Source: Sulfurovum sp. (lineage in GTDB: Bacteria > Campylobacterota > Campylobacteria > Campylobacterales > Sulfurovaceae). From it: a stretch of 35,834 nt of DNA. The translations under genes were made by a program, and so were the position numbers. Every line of letters begins with the position of its first letter. The stretch's first letter is position 1. This document shows, one piece after another, positions 16,014 through 23,634 of this stretch. The stretch spans positions 21,747 to 57,580 of the forward strand of contig JALUBF010000039.1 of NCBI GenBank assembly GCA_027045015.1, read 5' to 3'. The notes beneath the pieces were generated by a model, which made no database searches, had not been told where the DNA came from, and saw only the letters and a program-made list of their open reading frames with translations.

Positions 16014-16519
16014 CTCAATATATGTCCACTATTTTTTATGGTGTATGTTATACACTTTTTTGAAAAGAAGTTTTGAGCATCTTTTACATTTATTATCTTA
16101 TCATCTTCACCTAAAAAGACCTCTATCTTTACACCTCTGCTTAAAAGCGTATCTAATTTATCTTTATCCCAAAGATAATTTAAAAGCTCTTCCAATTCAT
16201 CTTTTGTACCAATCTCAACATACTCACTCAAATCAAGACTTGAAGGGTATATTACATTTTTTAAAAACTGCTTTACATAAGCCTCTTTAGAAGAGTCAAA
16301 ATAGATTAATTGAGTACGAATAAAACTAGACTTTTGAGCTTGAAAAAAAGCAGGAGATAGAAGTATAAGTCTATCTATACGATGGATTGCATTGTAAGCA
16401 TATTCAAATGCTTTTTGAGCTCCATATGAAAAACCTACTACCAATGACTCACTGTTGAAAAGATAAGATGAGAAGAGTACCTCCTCATTTTTTAGCGAAA
16501 ATCCATTAAAATATTTCAT
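16010..16519 (-). CDS. bioV: BioV-type pimeloyl-ACP methyl ester esterase
   Basis: In Helicobacter, BioV removes the methyl group from pimeloyl-ACP methyl ester to release the biotin precursor, in place of BioH. This 169-residue protein matches that small alpha/beta hydrolase in length and pattern: opening MKYFNGFSLKNEEVLF, nucleophile S31 in GFSYG, Asp in GEDDK (139-140), and His166 in NSGHILR at the extreme C-terminus. The resemblance is from memory of H. pylori BioV. It overlaps the FtsH-like gene by one base (TAATG) and the SDR gene by four. No other biotin-synthesis gene is nearby, though birA is at the right end. Confidence 0.85.
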   Translation of the reverse strand: MKYFNGFSLKNEEVLFSSYLFNSESLVVGFSYGAQKAFEYAYNAIHRIDRLILLSPAFFQAQKSSFIRTQLIYFDSSKEAYVKQFLKNVIYPSSLDLSEYVEIGTKDELEELLNYLWDKDKLDTLLSRGVKIEVFLGEDDKIINVKDAQNFFSKKCITYTIKNSGHILR

Positions 16520-18198
16520 TAAAATATAGCACGTAGAATATCTCTACACTTCTCTTGAGTTATATTTTCATAAAGTAAAAGATACTTAGATACCTTATCT
16601 AATGCTTCATCTAATGTTTTTAACATACGATTAAGTTCAGAGATAGACTCTTGTAAAATCTCCTCTACCTCATTTGCTGATGGAGTAAAACTATCTGTCA
16701 TAGAGTATTCATTTACTACTTTATATGCTATATCTTTAGCATTTGATATATCCGATACTGCATTTGTAAACTGCTCATTATATCGTACACGTGTAGCAAC
16801 ACTACCTGCAAGTAACACTTTTATCTGCGATAACAATGCCGTTTTAGATAGTATCTCCTGCTCTTGTATATTTAGATGACTATTTACTATACCTATCTTA
16901 TCAAATTCAACATCTAACCATGTAGCTATGACAGCTTTTGCACCTTGGTAGATAGATTGAATCTCTCGCTCTTCATCTGTAAAAGATAAAATCTTGTGTT
17001 TACCAAATATAACTTTCTCTTTTACTGCTTCAAAATCTGAAGTTGTTACAGAAGCTCTTTTGTTACGCATAGCATAAATTGTTGCTTCATTTATAAGTGT
17101 GCTTAACGCTGATGAATTGAAACCAACTGTCATATGTGCTATATCTTCTATATTTACATTATGTGGTTTATATTTTAAATAAAGCTTCAATATCTTTTCT
17201 CTATCTTCTAAATCTGGTAAAGATATATGGATACGCCTATCAAATCTTCCTGCACGAAGAAGTGCATCATCTAACATCTCAATCTTATTGGTTGCACCTA
17301 TTACTATAACTCCTGAAGAGTCTTCAAATCCGTCCATCTCTGTAAGAAGTTGATTTAAGGTTGCTTCACGTTCATCATTTCTAAACTCACCTCTACTCTT
17401 ACCTACAGCATCTATCTCATCTATAAAAACAATACTAGGAGCATTCTGTTTTGCTTTTTGAAACAATTCAGATACACGCTTAGCACCAATACCCACATAA
17501 ATATGTACAAAACTAGCACCACTTTGATAAAAAAATGGCACATTTGCTTCACCTGCAACTGCTTTTGATATAAGAGTTTTACCCACCCCTGGAGGTCCTG
17601 AAAGAAGCACACCTTTTGGAAGACGAATACCTAATTTATGATACTTTTTAGGATTTCTTAAAAAATCTATAATCTCTTCCAACTCCTCTTTAACATCTTT
17701 TATACCTGCAACATCATTAAATGTGATATTAGATATTATTGGTTTTATAGAAGTTGTCTCTACATTGGTATCCATATTATTATTGGCAGACTCAAATTGT
17801 TTCATCTGTATATCTCTATTTTCTTTTAAAAAACGAAATAATAGACCAAGAGTTATAAGTATTATGATAAAAGATAAAAAGTCATAAAAATTACTATTAT
17901 TTTCTACTACATATACTGGGTACTTCTCAAAAAATGCTGTTTTATTGATGGCATTTTTATATATTTTATATCTATTTGTAGCTGTTTTTATATGAATATA
18001 TGGACCATCTAATATAAGTTTTTCTATTTTATTGTTAGTATATAAGATATTTGCTTGTCTATTTGTAATAAGAGTATCTCTATCTCTAAAAAAAGCAAAA
18101 AGCAACAAAGCAGTAAGTAATATAGCTAAGAAAAAGATGATTTTAATATTTTTATTATTGATAAAATCGCTTTTATATCTCTGCTTTGTTTCCAGCAT
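16519..18198 (-). CDS. FtsH-like AAA+ membrane protein lacking the HEXXH protease site
   Basis: The protein has 559 residues from the ATG at 18198, which follows a perfect GGAGG by six bases; a longer GTG reading from 18213 is less likely. Two membrane segments (about 19-37 and 106-123) flank a small periplasmic domain, as in FtsH. The AAA+ module is intact: Walker A GPPGVGKT 201-208, pore loop with Y235-VG, Walker B IVFIDEID 256-263, and arginine-finger region LLRAGRFDRR. The zinc motif HEXXH, expected after the AAA+ lid, reads Y417-QGAK, so both histidines and the glutamate are gone. It is probably an unfoldase or chaperone rather than a protease. I recall a similar second FtsH in Helicobacter beside mtaB. 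Confidence 0.88.
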   Translation of the reverse strand: MLETKQRYKSDFINNKNIKIIFFLAILLTALLLFAFFRDRDTLITNRQANILYTNNKIEKLILDGPYIHIKTATNRYKIYKNAINKTAFFEKYPVYVVENNSNFYDFLSFIIILITLGLLFRFLKENRDIQMKQFESANNNMDTNVETTSIKPIISNITFNDVAGIKDVKEELEEIIDFLRNPKKYHKLGIRLPKGVLLSGPPGVGKTLISKAVAGEANVPFFYQSGASFVHIYVGIGAKRVSELFQKAKQNAPSIVFIDEIDAVGKSRGEFRNDEREATLNQLLTEMDGFEDSSGVIVIGATNKIEMLDDALLRAGRFDRRIHISLPDLEDREKILKLYLKYKPHNVNIEDIAHMTVGFNSSALSTLINEATIYAMRNKRASVTTSDFEAVKEKVIFGKHKILSFTDEEREIQSIYQGAKAVIATWLDVEFDKIGIVNSHLNIQEQEILSKTALLSQIKVLLAGSVATRVRYNEQFTNAVSDISNAKDIAYKVVNEYSMTDSFTPSANEVEEILQESISELNRMLKTLDEALDKVSKYLLLYENITQEKCRDILRAIF

Positions 18199-19420
18199 CA
18201 CTAACCTCCACACTATTTAGATATACCCAATTTGCACTCAAATCTTCATCTGAATGGACAGTAACTCTATTGAAATATTGGTCAAATCCTTGATATACTC
18301 CATTCTTTCCTGTTTCAAGAAGAACTTCAAGATTATCACTATGAGTACGTCTAAAAGCATAATTCTTAGCCTTTATAAGATTTGTAAGCTCATGGTGACG
18401 CTCTTTTGCTATGTTACCACGTATCTCAGGTTTCATAGATATTGAAGCTGTATTGTCACGTTTTGAGTATGAAAAAGCGTGTATATGTGTAAGTGGTAGC
18501 TCTCTTACTCTATCCATAGCTATCTTCCACTCTTTCTCATCTTCTCCAGGGTGACCTACAATAAAATCTGTCCCCAAAGCATACCCTTTTGATGATATCT
18601 TATTAAAGAGTTCCAAATCATCTTTGTAGTTATTGCGTCTATTCATAATCTCCAACATCTTATCACTTGTATGTTGTAGTGCTATGTGTAGTTGTTTAGC
18701 CATCCACGGTTCATTTAGTAGTTCCATAAACTCATCATCTATCTGTATAGGCTCAATACTACCTATACGTATGCGTCTTACTCCACGTATCTGGCTTATC
18801 TTTTTAAGTAGTTTTGCCATAGATGTATTGTGATCACGACCATAAGAACCAACATTTGTACCTGTGAGTATAAACTCTCCAAATCCATTAGATGCTAGTT
18901 TAGTAATTTGATTTAAGATAGTCTCCTCTTTATGCGAACGTGCCAAACCACGAACTTGAGGTATGATACAATAAGAACATGCAAAGTTACACCCCTCTTG
19001 TATCTTAATGAATGCCCTACTTTTGCCTACAAACTCTTCAACTATAGTAGAGTCTATATGTTTAAGGTCACCTATTTGGTAAAATGGCTTATCATTTTTA
19101 AGTATGCTATTTATCTTCTCTTTTTCAGAGTGACCCATCACACCAAATACTTTTTTGTCATTAAAAAGAGATTCTCCTTTAGAGTGAGAACCACAACCAG
19201 CAAGTATAATCTTAGCATCTGGGTTTTTACGTTTCATAGATGATATGTAGTTACGTACAGATGAATCTGCACCATTTGTTACCGTACATGAGTTTACTAC
19301 AATGTAATCTGAATGCAATTCATCATCACTTAACTCATACTCTTTTAGTTTGGAGATCATCACTTGTGTATCAAACTGATTTGTACGACATCCAAAAGTT
19401 TTAAAATATACTTTTTGCAC
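18173..19420 (-). CDS. mtaB: MtaB-type tRNA methylthiotransferase
   Basis: Radical-SAM enzyme that adds a methylthio group to t6A37 of tRNA. It has 415 residues. The N-terminal UPF0004 domain carries the second-cluster cysteines C11 (FGCRTNQFDT), C45 (NSCTVTNGAD) and C76 (AGCGSHS). The radical-SAM motif CNFACSYC places C144, C148 and C151. A TRAM domain is at the C-terminus. The CRTNQFD opening separates MtaB from MiaB and RimO. The start is GTG at 19420, overlapping the mscS stop by one base; its end overlaps the FtsH-like gene by 26 bases. Confidence 0.92.
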   Translation of the reverse strand: MQKVYFKTFGCRTNQFDTQVMISKLKEYELSDDELHSDYIVVNSCTVTNGADSSVRNYISSMKRKNPDAKIILAGCGSHSKGESLFNDKKVFGVMGHSEKEKINSILKNDKPFYQIGDLKHIDSTIVEEFVGKSRAFIKIQEGCNFACSYCIIPQVRGLARSHKEETILNQITKLASNGFGEFILTGTNVGSYGRDHNTSMAKLLKKISQIRGVRRIRIGSIEPIQIDDEFMELLNEPWMAKQLHIALQHTSDKMLEIMNRRNNYKDDLELFNKISSKGYALGTDFIVGHPGEDEKEWKIAMDRVRELPLTHIHAFSYSKRDNTASISMKPEIRGNIAKERHHELTNLIKAKNYAFRRTHSDNLEVLLETGKNGVYQGFDQYFNRVTVHSDEDLSANWVYLNSVEVSDAGNKAEI

Positions 19421-21078: not shown

Positions 21079-22127
21079 ACCTCTTCCTCAAATCTTGCCA
21101 ATACTTTTTTAACAATATTCTCATCAATGTCAGATACTATTTTGTGGTCTCCAACTCCATTAGCCAATATAAACTTAATGCTCCCTCTTGCAGACTTTTT
21201 ATCTAAAAAAAAGTGTTCATAAAAGCTATCTACATCTTCTATAGTATATGTTGTAGGTAAATTAGATTTATCAAGAAGAGCTTTTATCTCGTCTGCTTCA
21301 TCTCTACTCATAAGTCCAAGTTCTATAGATAACTCATTTGCCATAACCATACCAATAGCAACTGCTTCACCATGTAGATATGTTGTATAGTTTGTTTCAT
21401 TCTCTACAACGTGTCCAAAGGTATGTCCATAGTTTAGTACAGCTCGTATCCCTGCCTCTTTCTCATCTTGATTTACAACCCATGCTTTTAGAGATACACT
21501 TTTAGCTATCATCTCTTTTATACTCTCAACTTTTGTAAGATCTGCCCCTTGAAGATAGTTAAAAAACTCTCTATCAAACATAACAGCCATCTTTACCACC
21601 TCAGCAACACCTGCTGAAAACTCACGAGGAGGAAGAGTTTCTAAAAAAGCTGGGTCAATATATACTGCTTTTGGTTGATAAAAAGCACCTATTAGATTTT
21701 TGCCATATTTGTTATTTACACCTGTCTTACCACCTACAGATGCATCTACCTGACTAAGCAGAGTTGTAGGAATTTGGATAAAATCAATACCTCTTTGATA
21801 CAAACTAGCAGTAAAACCTGTCATATCTCCTATTACCCCACCACCAAATGCTATAAGAAGTGATTTTCTATCTAACTTATGATCAAAACACTCATTTAAA
21901 ATATTTTCTACCGTCTCTAATGTCTTATACCCCTCACCATCAGGGATAGTTACTATATGAAGATTTGTTGCAGAGATATTTGCTAAAAGTTTATCGAGAT
22001 GATACCCAGATACTGTAGGATTTGTAACGACTACTACAGACGTATCAAAAGTAAGTTTAGGGAGTCTATCAATAGTAATATCATATGTTATATCTTGCGT
22101 ATGAGCTAATTTTATAGAAACGTTCAT
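21075..22127 (-). CDS. aroB: 3-dehydroquinate synthase
   Basis: Second step of the shikimate pathway, cyclising DAHP to 3-dehydroquinate with NAD and a divalent metal. It has 350 residues. The NAD-binding part contains PDGEGYKTLE and the signature AFGGGVIGDMTGFTAS. Metal and substrate ligands lie in DASVGGKTGVN, the AGVAEVVKMA glutamate, and the histidines of LNYGHTFGHVVE and LHGEAVAIGM. It is the promoter-proximal gene of aroB-mscS-mtaB-ftsH-like-bioV-SDR. The ATG at 22127 follows AAGG. Confidence 0.96.
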   Translation of the reverse strand: MNVSIKLAHTQDITYDITIDRLPKLTFDTSVVVVTNPTVSGYHLDKLLANISATNLHIVTIPDGEGYKTLETVENILNECFDHKLDRKSLLIAFGGGVIGDMTGFTASLYQRGIDFIQIPTTLLSQVDASVGGKTGVNNKYGKNLIGAFYQPKAVYIDPAFLETLPPREFSAGVAEVVKMAVMFDREFFNYLQGADLTKVESIKEMIAKSVSLKAWVVNQDEKEAGIRAVLNYGHTFGHVVENETNYTTYLHGEAVAIGMVMANELSIELGLMSRDEADEIKALLDKSNLPTTYTIEDVDSFYEHFFLDKKSARGSIKFILANGVGDHKIVSDIDENIVKKVLARFEEEV

Positions 22128-22161
22128 AATTAAAACCTTATGTAATATAGTAATAAGCTTT

Positions 22162-22167
22162 ATTTTA
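22162..22167 (-). promoter_or_regulatory. Possible -10 box for the aroB operon
   Basis: TAAAAT on the minus strand in the context TTAGATAAAATAAAG, 34 bases before the aroB ATG. It is an imperfect match in very A/T-rich DNA, so weakly supported. Confidence 0.4.
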
Positions 22168-22262
22168 TCTAATTATTTATTAATAGCAAATGGGATAAGA
22201 AATTTTAACTAATATAGAAAATATATATACATAAATTTAAGTAATATTTTTAATAGAATTGA

Positions 22263-22268
22263 TATAAT
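22263..22268 (+). promoter_or_regulatory. -10 box for the lipoprotein gene pair
   Basis: A perfect TATAAT in the context TTGATATAATTTAG lies 25 bases before the proposed ATA start at 22294 and 14 bases before the AAGGA ribosome site (22283-22287). This spacing fits translation from 22294 and not from the ATG at 22360. Confidence 0.65.
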
Positions 22269-22293
22269 TTAGAAGAACTAAAAAGGATTTCCA

Positions 22294-22722
22294 ATAAAAA
22301 AGTTATTTCATTATTATTCTTTACTAATATTATTATTTTCAATAAATGCATGTACTATTATGCCCAAATTTGATCAATTAGCTTATGATAGAACTGTATC
22401 ATTAAAAGTTGATTCTCTTAACTTAATGGATAAATCAACACAACCATATATAAATTATAAAGATAAAGTAACAAAATTAACTATAAGAATTGAAAAAGCT
22501 TATCAATATGCAAAAGGTAAGCCTAACAATAAAATAATTACAAAACAGTGGTTAATTATAAAAAATCCTAAACGCCATCAAATTGCTGGTTACTTAAAAC
22601 TTTGGAAAGAGCATAAAATAATTTCTAAAAGTTTTATGACAGAGGCAAAAAAAACTATTGCTGAAGGTTTTGACCAAATTATTGGTTTAGAGAGTGGATT
22701 AATCAAAGGTAAAGATAAATAA
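22294..22722 (+). CDS. Uncharacterised lipoprotein, apparent ATA start
   Basis: The frame is open from a TAA at 22279. AAGGA (22283-22287) is followed after six bases by ATA, then codons for KKLFHYYSLLILLFSINA and a Cys at residue 20, a signal peptide with a usable lipobox (INAC). The first ATG, at 22360, has no ribosome site and would remove the whole signal. Hence the 142-residue reading from ATA. The mature part (KFDQLAYDRTVSLKVDSLNL onward) is helical, with a conserved look in LIIKNPKRHQIAGYLKLW and an alpha-helical C-terminus. I recall similar small lipoproteins in other marine bacteria, without a named function. It is paired with the next gene. Confidence 0.7.
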   Translation: MKKLFHYYSLLILLFSINACTIMPKFDQLAYDRTVSLKVDSLNLMDKSTQPYINYKDKVTKLTIRIEKAYQYAKGKPNNKIITKQWLIIKNPKRHQIAGYLKLWKEHKIISKSFMTEAKKTIAEGFDQIIGLESGLIKGKDK

Positions 22723-22736
22723 TAGGAGAAAAGAAA

Positions 22737-23072
22737 ATGTCTGATATAAAAGATTTTGATAAGTTTTTAATACTTTTAAAAGATGCAACAAAAGAGTTAG
22801 CTAAAACTATGCTAAAAGATTATGAGAAAGAAGCTTTGTCCGATACTAAGGTTTTTTTGAAAACATCAAAAGATGATATAGAACGTTGGTCTAAACTTCT
22901 TTCTGAAGGTAAATTGACCAAAGAAGATTATGAATGGTTAATATCAAGTAAAAAAGATGTACTAGAATTAGAACTTTTAAAAAATACTGGTCTAGGAGCT
23001 GTACAGATAGATAAATTTAAAAATGCATTTATACATTTACTCATAAATACTGCTTTAGATGTATTTCTTTAA
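22737..23072 (+). CDS. Uncharacterised 111-residue helical protein, partner of the lipoprotein
   Basis: It starts at ATG 22737 behind AGGAG (22724-22728), 14 bases after the lipoprotein stop, so it is probably co-transcribed. The protein is all-helical by eye, with a charged N-terminal half (DYEKEALSDTKVFLKTSKDD), a central ERWSKLLSEGKLTKEDYEWL, and a hydrophobic amphipathic C-terminal helix (IDKFKNAFIHLLINTALDVF). It has no signal peptide and no catalytic motif. I recall the pair as a recurrent unit elsewhere but know no function. It converges on ldt with only 10 bases between. Confidence 0.75.
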   Translation: MSDIKDFDKFLILLKDATKELAKTMLKDYEKEALSDTKVFLKTSKDDIERWSKLLSEGKLTKEDYEWLISSKKDVLELELLKNTGLGAVQIDKFKNAFIHLLINTALDVFL

Positions 23073-23082
23073 AATAACTAGT

Positions 23083-23634
23083 CTATAAATATATTTTACG
23101 CAGATCATATTCAGCAAATGGCATATATGTATGCCTTGTAACTACTATTTTTGTCTTATATGTAGCCCAATTATAAAGTACTGGAATATCTTTCTTATCA
23201 ACATGTATACAACCATGAGACATCCAATCTACACTACCCTCATGTATAGCATGTCCCCAGCGTGTAAACTTTAACATATAATCCATATTGTCTATGCCTG
23301 ATAAATCTGGAAAATCTTTAGACATATGATAACGCTTTTTTTCTATAATAGGAAAAATTCCAGAAGGACTACTAAACTCTCTAGCCCCTGATGTTATGGG
23401 AGCACTCCACCATACTGTACCATCTCTATCTACAGCATAAAAACGTCCATCACTTCCAGCTTCACGTACAGAAACAACAATAAACGATTTACCTGTTAAA
23501 TTTATAGTTTTATATCTATCTTTATATTTCAATTTAAATATTGTTTTTGAAATAGGAATAGTTTCAGTTCCTTTTACTATAGATTTAGTAAATCCTATAG
23601 AAACTACAAACAATAATAAAAATATAATCTTCAA
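23083..23634 (-). CDS. Secreted L,D-transpeptidase-type (YkuD) protein
   Basis: The 183-residue protein has a signal peptide (IIFLLLFVVSIGFTKS, about 1-17) and a YkuD-like catalytic domain. H131 (AIHEGSVDWM) and S139-HGC142-IH144 give the HxxxxxxxSHGC active site with C142 as nucleophile. The arginine that usually follows as SHGCxR is His144. Such enzymes make or trim 3-3 crosslinks or attach proteins to peptidoglycan; in relatives some act as carboxypeptidases that set cell shape. The start is TTG. It is last in the run from atp through tol-pal-cpoB, 10 bases after cpoB, which suits an envelope role. Confidence 0.85.
   Translation of the reverse strand: MKIIFLLLFVVSIGFTKSIVKGTETIPISKTIFKLKYKDRYKTINLTGKSFIVVSVREAGSDGRFYAVDRDGTVWWSAPITSGAREFSSPSGIFPIIEKKRYHMSKDFPDLSGIDNMDYMLKFTRWGHAIHEGSVDWMSHGCIHVDKKDIPVLYNWATYKTKIVVTRHTYMPFAEYDLRKIYL

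What the first reader, a model, noticed from the sequence alone, without database searches (positions are those of the whole stretch)
22294..23072. Uncharacterised lipoprotein plus helical partner as a stand-alone two-gene unit
The pair has its own -10, tight spacing and good ribosome sites, and sits between two operons of opposite direction. One product is a predicted lipoprotein, the other a 111-residue helical protein without a signal. I recall look-alike pairs in distant marine bacteria without any assigned role, so this could be a conserved module of unknown function.
Basis: partly seen in the sequence, partly recalled or inferred. Interest (0 to 1): 0.55.

Follow-up and report, generated by a model that had tools for sequence, protein, structure and literature searches.

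The report
Mobile lipoprotein and helical-hairpin gene pair
Two small neighbouring genes, one for a membrane-anchored lipoprotein and one for a hairpin-shaped helical protein, are inherited together across very different bacteria and in a phage, and although their function is unknown the pattern points to a job at the cell envelope, possibly in conflicts with phages.

Summary
The pair is real: a lipoprotein gene (22294-22722, ATA start, Cys at codon 20) and a 111-residue helical gene (22737-23072), 14 bp apart, both with good ribosome sites. It is a widespread, co-inherited module. In 296 genomes of one phylum (that of a 'Bacteroidetes' record) each half is found in 27 and both, side by side, in 26. 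Similarities of the halves correlate (r 0.78, 0 of 5000 permutations); both evolve under purifying selection. Near the window it is rare: the own genome and 1 of 149 others. Settings include a prophage, tail clusters beside an endolysin, and a SIR2-HerA/type IIG island. PADLOC holds the lipoprotein as 'Csx23, unknown function' (1.2e-13), but it is unlike the studied cA4-binding Csx23: all-helical model, one hydrophobic segment ending in a lipobox, no Cas10 hit in this 86%-complete genome. The partner has no reliable match in Pfam, NCBIfam, PHROGs or PADLOC. My best guess, a phage-exclusion or anti-phage envelope module, is about 30% likely; a control did not show clear enrichment of defence genes nearby.

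The parts
22263..22268 (+). possible -10 element (TATAAT) upstream of the pair
   Evidence: exact match; not above chance in this AT-rich sequence, and not part of any site listed by the promoter scan
22283..22287 (+). ribosome-binding site AAGGA, 6 nt before the ATA start
   Evidence: read from the sequence
22294..22722 (+). lipoprotein gene, 142 aa, ATA start, all-helical bundle after the signal peptide
   Evidence: homologue beside the helical gene in 33 of 35 other loci (in one of them with a gene between); AlphaFold2 mean pLDDT 86.8, six helices, no strand; PADLOC PDLC01072 1.2e-13
22351..22353 (+). lipobox cysteine codon (FSINA|C)
   Evidence: a lipobox-like pattern is found in 31 of 34 lipoproteins, window included, and the other three have a Cys at the same place by eye
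22724..22729 (+). ribosome-binding site AGGAGA, 7 nt before ATG
   Evidence: read from the sequence
22737..23072 (+). 111-aa helical-hairpin gene, no signal peptide, no transmembrane segment by hydropathy, moderately hydrophobic C-terminal tail
   Evidence: AlphaFold2 mean pLDDT 90.2, two long helices 2-56 and 62-110; highest 19-residue Kyte-Doolittle mean 0.96, in the last 19 residues

Best explanation
A mobile two-gene envelope module. SHOWN: the two genes are real, co-inherited, under purifying selection, found in several phyla and in one prophage. One product carries a lipobox and models as a helical bundle; the other models as a helical hairpin without signal peptide and with a moderately hydrophobic C-terminal tail. 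INFERRED: the lipoprotein is exported, acylated and held on the periplasmic side of a membrane, while the hairpin stays inside and lies on the inner membrane through its tail. The pair gives whatever element or host carries it an advantage at the envelope, most likely by blocking entry of, or lysis by, competing phages (superinfection exclusion or anti-phage protection). That would explain its presence in prophage accessory regions and beside defence genes, its patchy transfer, and its survival as a lone chromosomal pair as in this window.
For: Strict pairing and co-inheritance; dN/dS 0.06-0.21 in the comparisons with finite dS. Patchiness: the own genome and 1 of 149 others, yet the lipoprotein of Chitiniphilus (Pseudomonadota) is 67% identical to one from the 'Bacteroidetes'-phylum sample. 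In Chitiniphilus it lies inside a prophage, P2-like by my reading of the gene order, between a regulator-like gene and gene D and convergent with the tail operon; the same stretch is an IMG/VR viral record. Other phage-type settings: tail clusters with an M15 peptidase gene next to the pair (L098, L100, L101) and a region with a weak holin hit and DUF5675 (L095). Defence-type settings: a type IIG enzyme on one side and SIR2-HerA on the other (L081), cas10 2.5 kb downstream (L108), weakly SLATT-like and CHAT genes (L109), phospholipases of PADLOC's 'Effector' models (L093, L094). Two phage proteins, one named lipoprotein, are the best viral fold matches of the window lipoprotein, E 0.014 and 0.074.
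Against: No function was tested. In a matched control, strong PADLOC hits around the pair were not clearly above random regions: at E <= 1e-20 the 96 neighbours gave 38 models, of which the 25 shown trace to one island (SIR2, HerA, type IIG), two patatins and an IetS-like protein; the 95 control proteins gave six models from at most seven proteins, about four if related models hit the same protein. Many loci lie beside ordinary genes, for example before dnaX-ybaB-recR-like genes in four genomes, and the window's flanks are ordinary. The two products are predicted to sit on opposite sides of the inner membrane, so direct contact needs an unseen step. Tblastn against 50,697 phage and 72,556 plasmid records found nothing for the window's or the Chitiniphilus helical protein, nor for the Chitiniphilus lipoprotein in the phages. 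The prophage position, next to gene D, is not the known P2 defence hotspot.
Confidence: 0.3

Rival explanations
1. Envelope-breaching accessory: the pair helps muralytic enzymes and phospholipases open the envelope, as a lysis helper in phages and tail-like particles and as part of a suicide response in cells; the lipoprotein would play a role like an outer-membrane spanin.
For: M15 peptidase gene directly upstream in L094, L098, L100, L101 (one tested by Pfam, the others by BLAST clustering); patatin upstream and an amidase-like gene downstream in L083 and L088, patatin upstream in L023; cell-wall hydrolase gene downstream in L108; patatin downstream in L093, L094; PGAP1-like lipase downstream in L090. 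Profiles made from these enzymes hit 6 of 24 pair regions and 0 of 24 control regions, Fisher 0.022, or 0.11 if related loci count once. A holin is found in the L101 cluster.
Against: The comparison is biased, since the query profiles come from the pair regions. Neither protein has a second transmembrane segment by hydropathy; the partner lacks the N-terminal anchor of an inner-membrane spanin. Most loci, the window included, have no such enzyme beside the pair. L098, L100 and L101 are close relatives, as are L083 and L088, and L093 and L094.
Confidence: 0.25
2. Envelope housekeeping: a chromosomal lipoprotein with a cytosolic partner that supports cell-wall or outer-membrane upkeep and is occasionally picked up by mobile elements.
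For: Many loci are lone chromosomal pairs; four related genomes keep it before dnaX-ybaB-recR-like genes; both genes are under purifying selection. In the window it lies beside an L,D-transpeptidase and the tol-pal-like cluster.
Against: Very patchy: the own genome and 1 of 149 others nearby, 27 of 296 in the richest phylum sampled. The transpeptidase and ybgF are neighbours in 29 of 29 relatives' loci examined, none with the pair within the 1.5 kb flanks, so that company looks like an accident of position.
Confidence: 0.2
3. Toxin and antidote pair: the lipoprotein acts on the envelope and the helical protein restrains it (or the reverse).
For: An intact helical gene occurs alone in G492 (no lipoprotein hit in the genome) and in G689 (none within 20 kb; the rest of that genome was not searched), while the only lipoprotein hit without partner among the 296 genomes is a broken fragment in G1403. 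That is the asymmetry expected if the helical protein is the harmless half.
Against: Three cases only. The halves are predicted in different compartments; no toxin or antitoxin model of Pfam, NCBIfam or PADLOC matches.
Confidence: 0.12
4. Type III CRISPR effector of the studied Csx23 kind, opened by cyclic tetra-adenylate.
For: The PADLOC model named Csx23 matches 7 of 8 lipoproteins scanned, up to 3.2e-49; the best-scoring one lies 2.5 kb upstream of a cas10 gene.
Against: The model is all-helical with no strand, whereas the studied binding domain has a three-stranded sheet (PMC11014256, section read); one N-terminal hydrophobic segment ending in a lipobox instead of two transmembrane helices; no Cas10 hit in the window's genome (86% complete). 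Of ten genomes searched (eight with the pair, two with the helical gene only) four have strong Cas10, three have none and three have only weak hits, best 22.7-29.3 bits, which I take for GGDEF proteins since the E. coli control also rings. No Csx23 entry matches by sequence in the PDB search.
Confidence: 0.03

Closest known systems
PADLOC-DB model PDLC01072 'Csx23' (unknown function)
   Same: The lipoprotein matches over nearly its whole length (E 1.2e-13, window residues 10-135; L040 homologue 3.2e-49 end to end).
   Different: The label implies a CRISPR accessory gene. In the window no cas gene is seen, and among ten genomes searched a strong Cas10 lies on the pair's contig only in G1026. 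The co-inherited helical partner has no PADLOC match (6 of 6 members scanned).
Vibrio cholerae Csx23, cA4-activated membrane effector (Gruschow 2024, PMC11014256; abstract, sections 4, 21, 23 and passages read)
   Same: Similar length, same name as PADLOC's label, membrane-linked.
   Different: Two transmembrane helices plus a cytoplasmic alpha/beta cA4-binding domain, against a lipobox and an all-helical model here. Its sequence was not at hand for direct alignment.
Phage superinfection-exclusion lipoproteins such as Ltp of Streptococcus phage TP-J34 (PMC3952083, start of abstract seen in a search listing)
   Same: Prophage-encoded lipoprotein.
   Different: From a phage of a Gram-positive host; no sequence comparison was made here.
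Two-component spanins (Rz/Rz1), recalled
   Same: A lipoprotein gene beside an endolysin-like gene in phage-like clusters.
   Different: The partner has no N-terminal membrane anchor; neither protein shows a second transmembrane segment.
Accessory defence regions of P2-like phages (Rousset 2022, PMC9122126; passages read)
   Same: Small accessory genes in a P2-like prophage.
   Different: Their hotspot lies between gpA and gpQ; the pair in Chitiniphilus lies next to gene D.

Membership tests
PADLOC Csx23 profile | profile match over most of the length | tested here: met
   1.2e-13, profile 18-135 of 143; no curated cut-off is given by the tool
Studied Csx23 (cA4 effector) | two N-terminal transmembrane helices | tested here: not met
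   one hydrophobic segment ending in a lipobox; after the Cys the highest 19-residue Kyte-Doolittle mean is 0.48
Studied Csx23 (cA4 effector) | C-terminal alpha/beta cA4-binding domain | tested here: not met
   AlphaFold2 model has helices only, mean pLDDT 86.8; three-stranded sheet in the known domain. Absence of Csx23 from the fold lists is not counted
Studied Csx23 (cA4 effector) | linked type III CRISPR system | tested here: not met
   no Cas10 palm hit in G000, which is 86% complete; none of the ORFs listed in the window reads as a cas gene (by eye)
Two-component spanin | outer-membrane lipoprotein subunit | tested here: inconclusive
   lipobox present; which membrane holds it was not determined
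Two-component spanin | partner with N-terminal transmembrane anchor and periplasmic coiled coil | tested here: not met
   no signal or transmembrane segment by hydropathy in P0002
Superinfection-exclusion lipoprotein | prophage-borne lipoprotein | tested here: inconclusive
   true of the Chitiniphilus homologue; no phage gene seen in the window itself (by eye)
Superinfection-exclusion lipoprotein | blocks phage infection | not testable with these tools
   needs phage assays
Toxin-antitoxin pair | one half toxic, the other neutralising | not testable with these tools
   only the weak asymmetry of solitary copies
Pilotin or known immunity protein | match to a curated family | tested here: inconclusive
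   no Pfam or NCBIfam family below E 0.02 for either window protein; absence of a match is not proof

The most novel reading that the evidence does not exclude
A new kind of two-compartment envelope system: a cytosolic amphipathic hairpin that senses attack or damage at the inner membrane and a lipoprotein that acts in the periplasm, shared as one exchangeable cassette between phages (lysis or exclusion) and bacterial defence islands, where it replaces or assists phospholipase and cell-wall-cutting effectors. The PADLOC label 'Csx23' would then cover a CRISPR-independent module unrelated to the studied Csx23.
Probability: 0.2. Interest if true: 0.75.

Novelty: new variant of a known kind. Interest (0 to 1): 0.5.

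Why it matters
It turns a hunch into a defined, testable module: two genes kept together across several phyla with no known function, half of it filed under a defence name that probably misleads. If it is an anti-phage or lysis cassette, a simple cloning and phage-plating experiment would show it, and the two profiles could then be used to find it in many genomes. It also suggests that the Csx23 label in one database may cover proteins that do not share the studied fold.

Tried and rejected
Weak hits in relatives (E about 1e-3 to 1e-2; three of five, one of three, eight of nine; also one at 0.075 in the own genome) were dropped as chance by E-value and frame length or stops; adjacency was not tested. 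Viral contigs was scanned five times and always gave the same single record, identical over 16,324 bases to the Chitiniphilus genome locus. A first correlation of the two halves (r 0.235, 344 of 5000 permutations as high) was wrong because one row (L083) was trimmed to a short domain and the alignment was global; one search corrects it (r 0.780). The dN/dS run was made before that mend, so its helical list lacks the L083 row. The defence-enrichment idea failed a control; only 25 of 38 models are shown for the pair set, and the control proteins are longer in all (47,516 against 32,706 residues). The envelope-enzyme comparison uses profiles taken from the pair regions and is biased. Foldseek gave no match below E 0.001 (lipoprotein, PDB and viral; hairpin, PDB only); VIA Z values up to 11.8 for the bundle are within what helical bundles give by chance, and Csx23 is not in those lists. 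An empty-site test was not possible because aroB is not next to the transpeptidase in any of 29 relatives' loci (37 of 60 genomes had a transpeptidase hit; loci were given for the best 30, own included; flanks 1.5 kb, some cut by contig ends). In one search the script misplaced the Cys in three rows (L086, L087, L097; by my reading of its printout also one Cys early in L095). Gene calling was by longest open frame and is unreliable in GC-rich loci. Shah 2019 and Shmakov 2018, cited sources on predicted accessory genes, are not held, so where PADLOC took the name from was not traced. Four searches of print brought no paper on the pair in their listings: one search listed 12 papers with the word Csx23, of which I read parts of two (PMC11014256, PMC11229360); one search gave 17 papers (10 listed), five (passages of PMC9122126 read), none. 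That does not show that nothing is in print.

Full report
What is there. Between aroB (its start at 22127, - strand) and an L,D-transpeptidase gene (23083-23634, - strand) the window carries two + strand genes. The first, 22294-22722, reads as a 142-residue lipoprotein: charged start, hydrophobic stretch, lipobox with Cys20. Before the Cys the frame offers no ATG, GTG or TTG, only ATA, with AAGGA six bases before the first ATA. The second, 22737-23072, has ATG, AGGAGA seven bases upstream and no signal. A TATAAT lies at 22263-22268, but that hexamer is not commoner in the window than in shuffles (83 against 101), and the promoter scan lists no site that uses it; no terminator-like site was found. 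GC of the pair is 24.8% against 30.8% for the window; 2 of 39 ORFs are poorer in GC than the lipoprotein gene and 9 of 39 than the helical one.

Is it conserved? Of 150 genomes, the own one included, only the own genome and G039 (same genus) have convincing homologues; in G039 both lie side by side (44% and 41% identity). Among 397 genomes of the phylum only the window's own hit is convincing (G039 is not among the matches, so evidently was not drawn). A pattern scan of the 84,980-species genome collection with an alignment of three helical sequences gave five loci: Chitiniphilus shinanonensis, a Sulfurovum MAG (contig of the same length as G039's), a MAG labelled Desulfonema limicola, a Balneolaceae MAG and a Bacteroidetes MAG; the lipoprotein profile hits four of the five. 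Wider profile searches found the helical protein in 2 of 321 genomes of Chitiniphilus's class, 4 of 297 of the phylum of the Desulfonema record and 27 of 296 of the phylum of the Bacteroidetes record, centres included. In the same 296 genomes the lipoprotein profile hits 27; 26 genomes have both. G492 has the helical gene only; G1403 has a broken lipoprotein fragment only, with a recombinase-like ORF in the same 3 kb (that name is my reading). A Fisher test on 26/1/1/268 gives 5e-35, ignoring shared ancestry.

Across 36 loci including the window, 34 have the lipoprotein beside the helical gene (in L109 with one gene between); the exceptions are L106 (G492) and L111 (G689). The helical protein of L111, a weak hit at first (6.1e-8), is 70% identical to that of L104, which has a lipoprotein. 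Similarities of the two proteins across the 34 pairs correlate (r 0.780, no permutation of 5000 as high). dN/dS lies between 0.06 and 0.21 in the listed comparisons over 60% identity with finite dS. The Chitiniphilus lipoprotein is closest to one in the 'Bacteroidetes'-phylum sample (L080, 67% identical, tree support 95/93), which points to transfer between phyla. The window's pair has no well-supported nearest relative.

What the proteins look like. All 34 lipoproteins have a Cys at the lipobox position; 31 fit a regular expression and the other three were judged by eye. The window lipoprotein models as helices only (mean pLDDT 86.8, pTM 0.74; helices 28-45, 52-75, 80-89, 97-107, 112-134 after the signal). 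The helical protein models as a two-helix hairpin, 2-56 and 62-110 (mean pLDDT 90.2, pTM 0.59). Its last 20 or so residues are its most hydrophobic part in most homologues, below the usual transmembrane level of about 1.6 (recalled) in all 36 (window 0.96, highest 1.57; amphipathicity varies). No PDB match passes E 0.001. The best viral fold matches of the lipoprotein are two uncultured phage proteins, one named lipoprotein (E 0.014 and 0.074, TM 0.61-0.72).

Families. Pfam and NCBIfam have no credible match for either window protein (best E 0.028 and 0.03); Pfam has none for the G039 pair. PHROGs gives one weak hit, phrog_15116, E 0.0015, unknown function, to residues 72-102 of the helical protein, and weaker ones. 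PADLOC holds the lipoprotein as PDLC01072 'Csx23', 'Unknown function': window 1.2e-13, L040 3.2e-49, L022 1.2e-24, Chitiniphilus 7.7e-19, L023 7.1e-16, G039 3.4e-11, L039 1.9e-8; the divergent L041 protein does not match. The partner has no PADLOC match in 6 of 6 members scanned.

Is it Csx23? The studied Csx23 has two transmembrane helices and a cytoplasmic domain with a three-stranded sheet that binds cA4 (PMC11014256, abstract, sections 4, 21, 23 and passages read). The window protein has one hydrophobic segment ending in a lipobox and a helical domain. Ten genomes were searched for Cas10, eight with the pair and two with the helical gene only: four have a strong hit (over 110 bits: G490, G974, G1022, G1026), on the pair's contig only in G1026; three have only weak hits (best 22.7-29.3 bits), three none, the window's genome (86% complete) among these. 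I conclude that it is not a member of the studied family, whatever PADLOC's name; I could not align the two sequences directly.

Where it travels. In Chitiniphilus the pair lies inside a prophage, P2-like by my reading of gene order and also held as an IMG/VR viral record: tail protein (phrog_52, 2.8e-149) and tape measure (1.9e-110) on the opposite strand on one side, a regulator-like gene (2.2e-10) and accessory genes on the other. In L098, L100 and L101 it follows an M15 peptidase gene in a tail cluster; M15 was tested in L098, sheath and holin in L101, and the clusters share genes by BLAST. In L095 it lies after a weakly holin-like gene (3.2e-4) and a DUF5675 gene. In L081 it lies between a type IIG restriction enzyme (with a 249-residue unknown between) and SIR2-HerA. 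L083, L088 and L023 have a patatin before it (tested in L083), L083 and L088 an amidase-like gene after it (name by my reading; in L083 one gene lies between); L093 and L094 have another patatin, PADLOC 'Effector, Phospholipase', after it; L090 a PGAP1-like lipase; L108 a cell-wall hydrolase and, 2.5 kb downstream, cas10. L109, a divergent copy, has a weak SLATT-like gene inside the pair and a CHAT protein downstream. Four related loci have dnaX-, ybaB- and recR-like genes after it (names by my reading). Many loci have nothing telling.

Controls. I compared the two nearest genes on each side of the pair in 24 genomes with genes around a point elsewhere on the same contigs, coordinates chosen by hand before looking. 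PADLOC at E <= 1e-20: pair set 96 proteins, 38 models, the 25 shown tracing to SIR2, HerA and type IIG in one island, two patatins and one IetS-like protein; control 95 proteins, six models from at most seven proteins, about four if related models hit the same protein. Counted by locus this is no clear enrichment. Profiles from the envelope enzymes hit 6 of 24 pair regions and 0 of 24 control regions (Fisher 0.022, or 0.11 with relatives merged), but the profiles came from the pair regions. Context therefore suggests, and does not prove, an envelope or conflict role.

The window's own site. The gene ybgF and the transpeptidase are neighbours in 29 of 29 relatives' loci examined, but aroB is not beside them in any and the pair is in none (1.5 kb flanks, some cut by contig ends). 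The pair thus sits at a break in gene order, in line with insertion, without proof.

Verdict. I commit to a phage-exclusion or anti-phage envelope module at 0.30, with envelope breaching at 0.25, housekeeping at 0.20, toxin-antidote at 0.12 and cA4 effector at 0.03.

Noticed in passing
window 22294-22296: The lipoprotein gene has no ATG, GTG or TTG before its lipobox; ATA is the only start that fits the ribosome site. Rare start codon or assembly error.
   Followed up: partly
window 16519-18213 (-): FtsH-like AAA protein (name by my reading) with Walker A GPPGVGKT but no HExxH zinc-protease motif; the expected place reads YQGAK. Looks like a proteolytically dead FtsH paralogue.
   Followed up: partly
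L081 6289-14998: Type IIG restriction enzyme, a 249-aa unknown, the lipoprotein pair, then SIR2 and HerA on one strand: the pair appears built into a defence cluster.
   Followed up: partly
L109 7370-13533: PHP/ATPase-like gene, divergent lipoprotein, weakly SLATT-like membrane protein, divergent helical gene, 143-aa unknown and a TPR-CHAT protein in a row; may be an uncharacterised conflict system.
   Followed up: partly
L138 (G1403), 3 kb: Broken lipoprotein fragment without a helical partner, with a recombinase-like ORF nearby.
   Followed up: partly
window 22127-23083: Gene-order break between the aroB block and the conserved ybgF-transpeptidase block; the 29 relatives' loci examined do not share this junction.
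   Followed up: partly
L089 10883-14464: Downstream of the pair, a possible ATPase, an unknown and a DNA-methyltransferase-like gene in a row (names by eye); a candidate restriction or defence cluster.
   Followed up: no
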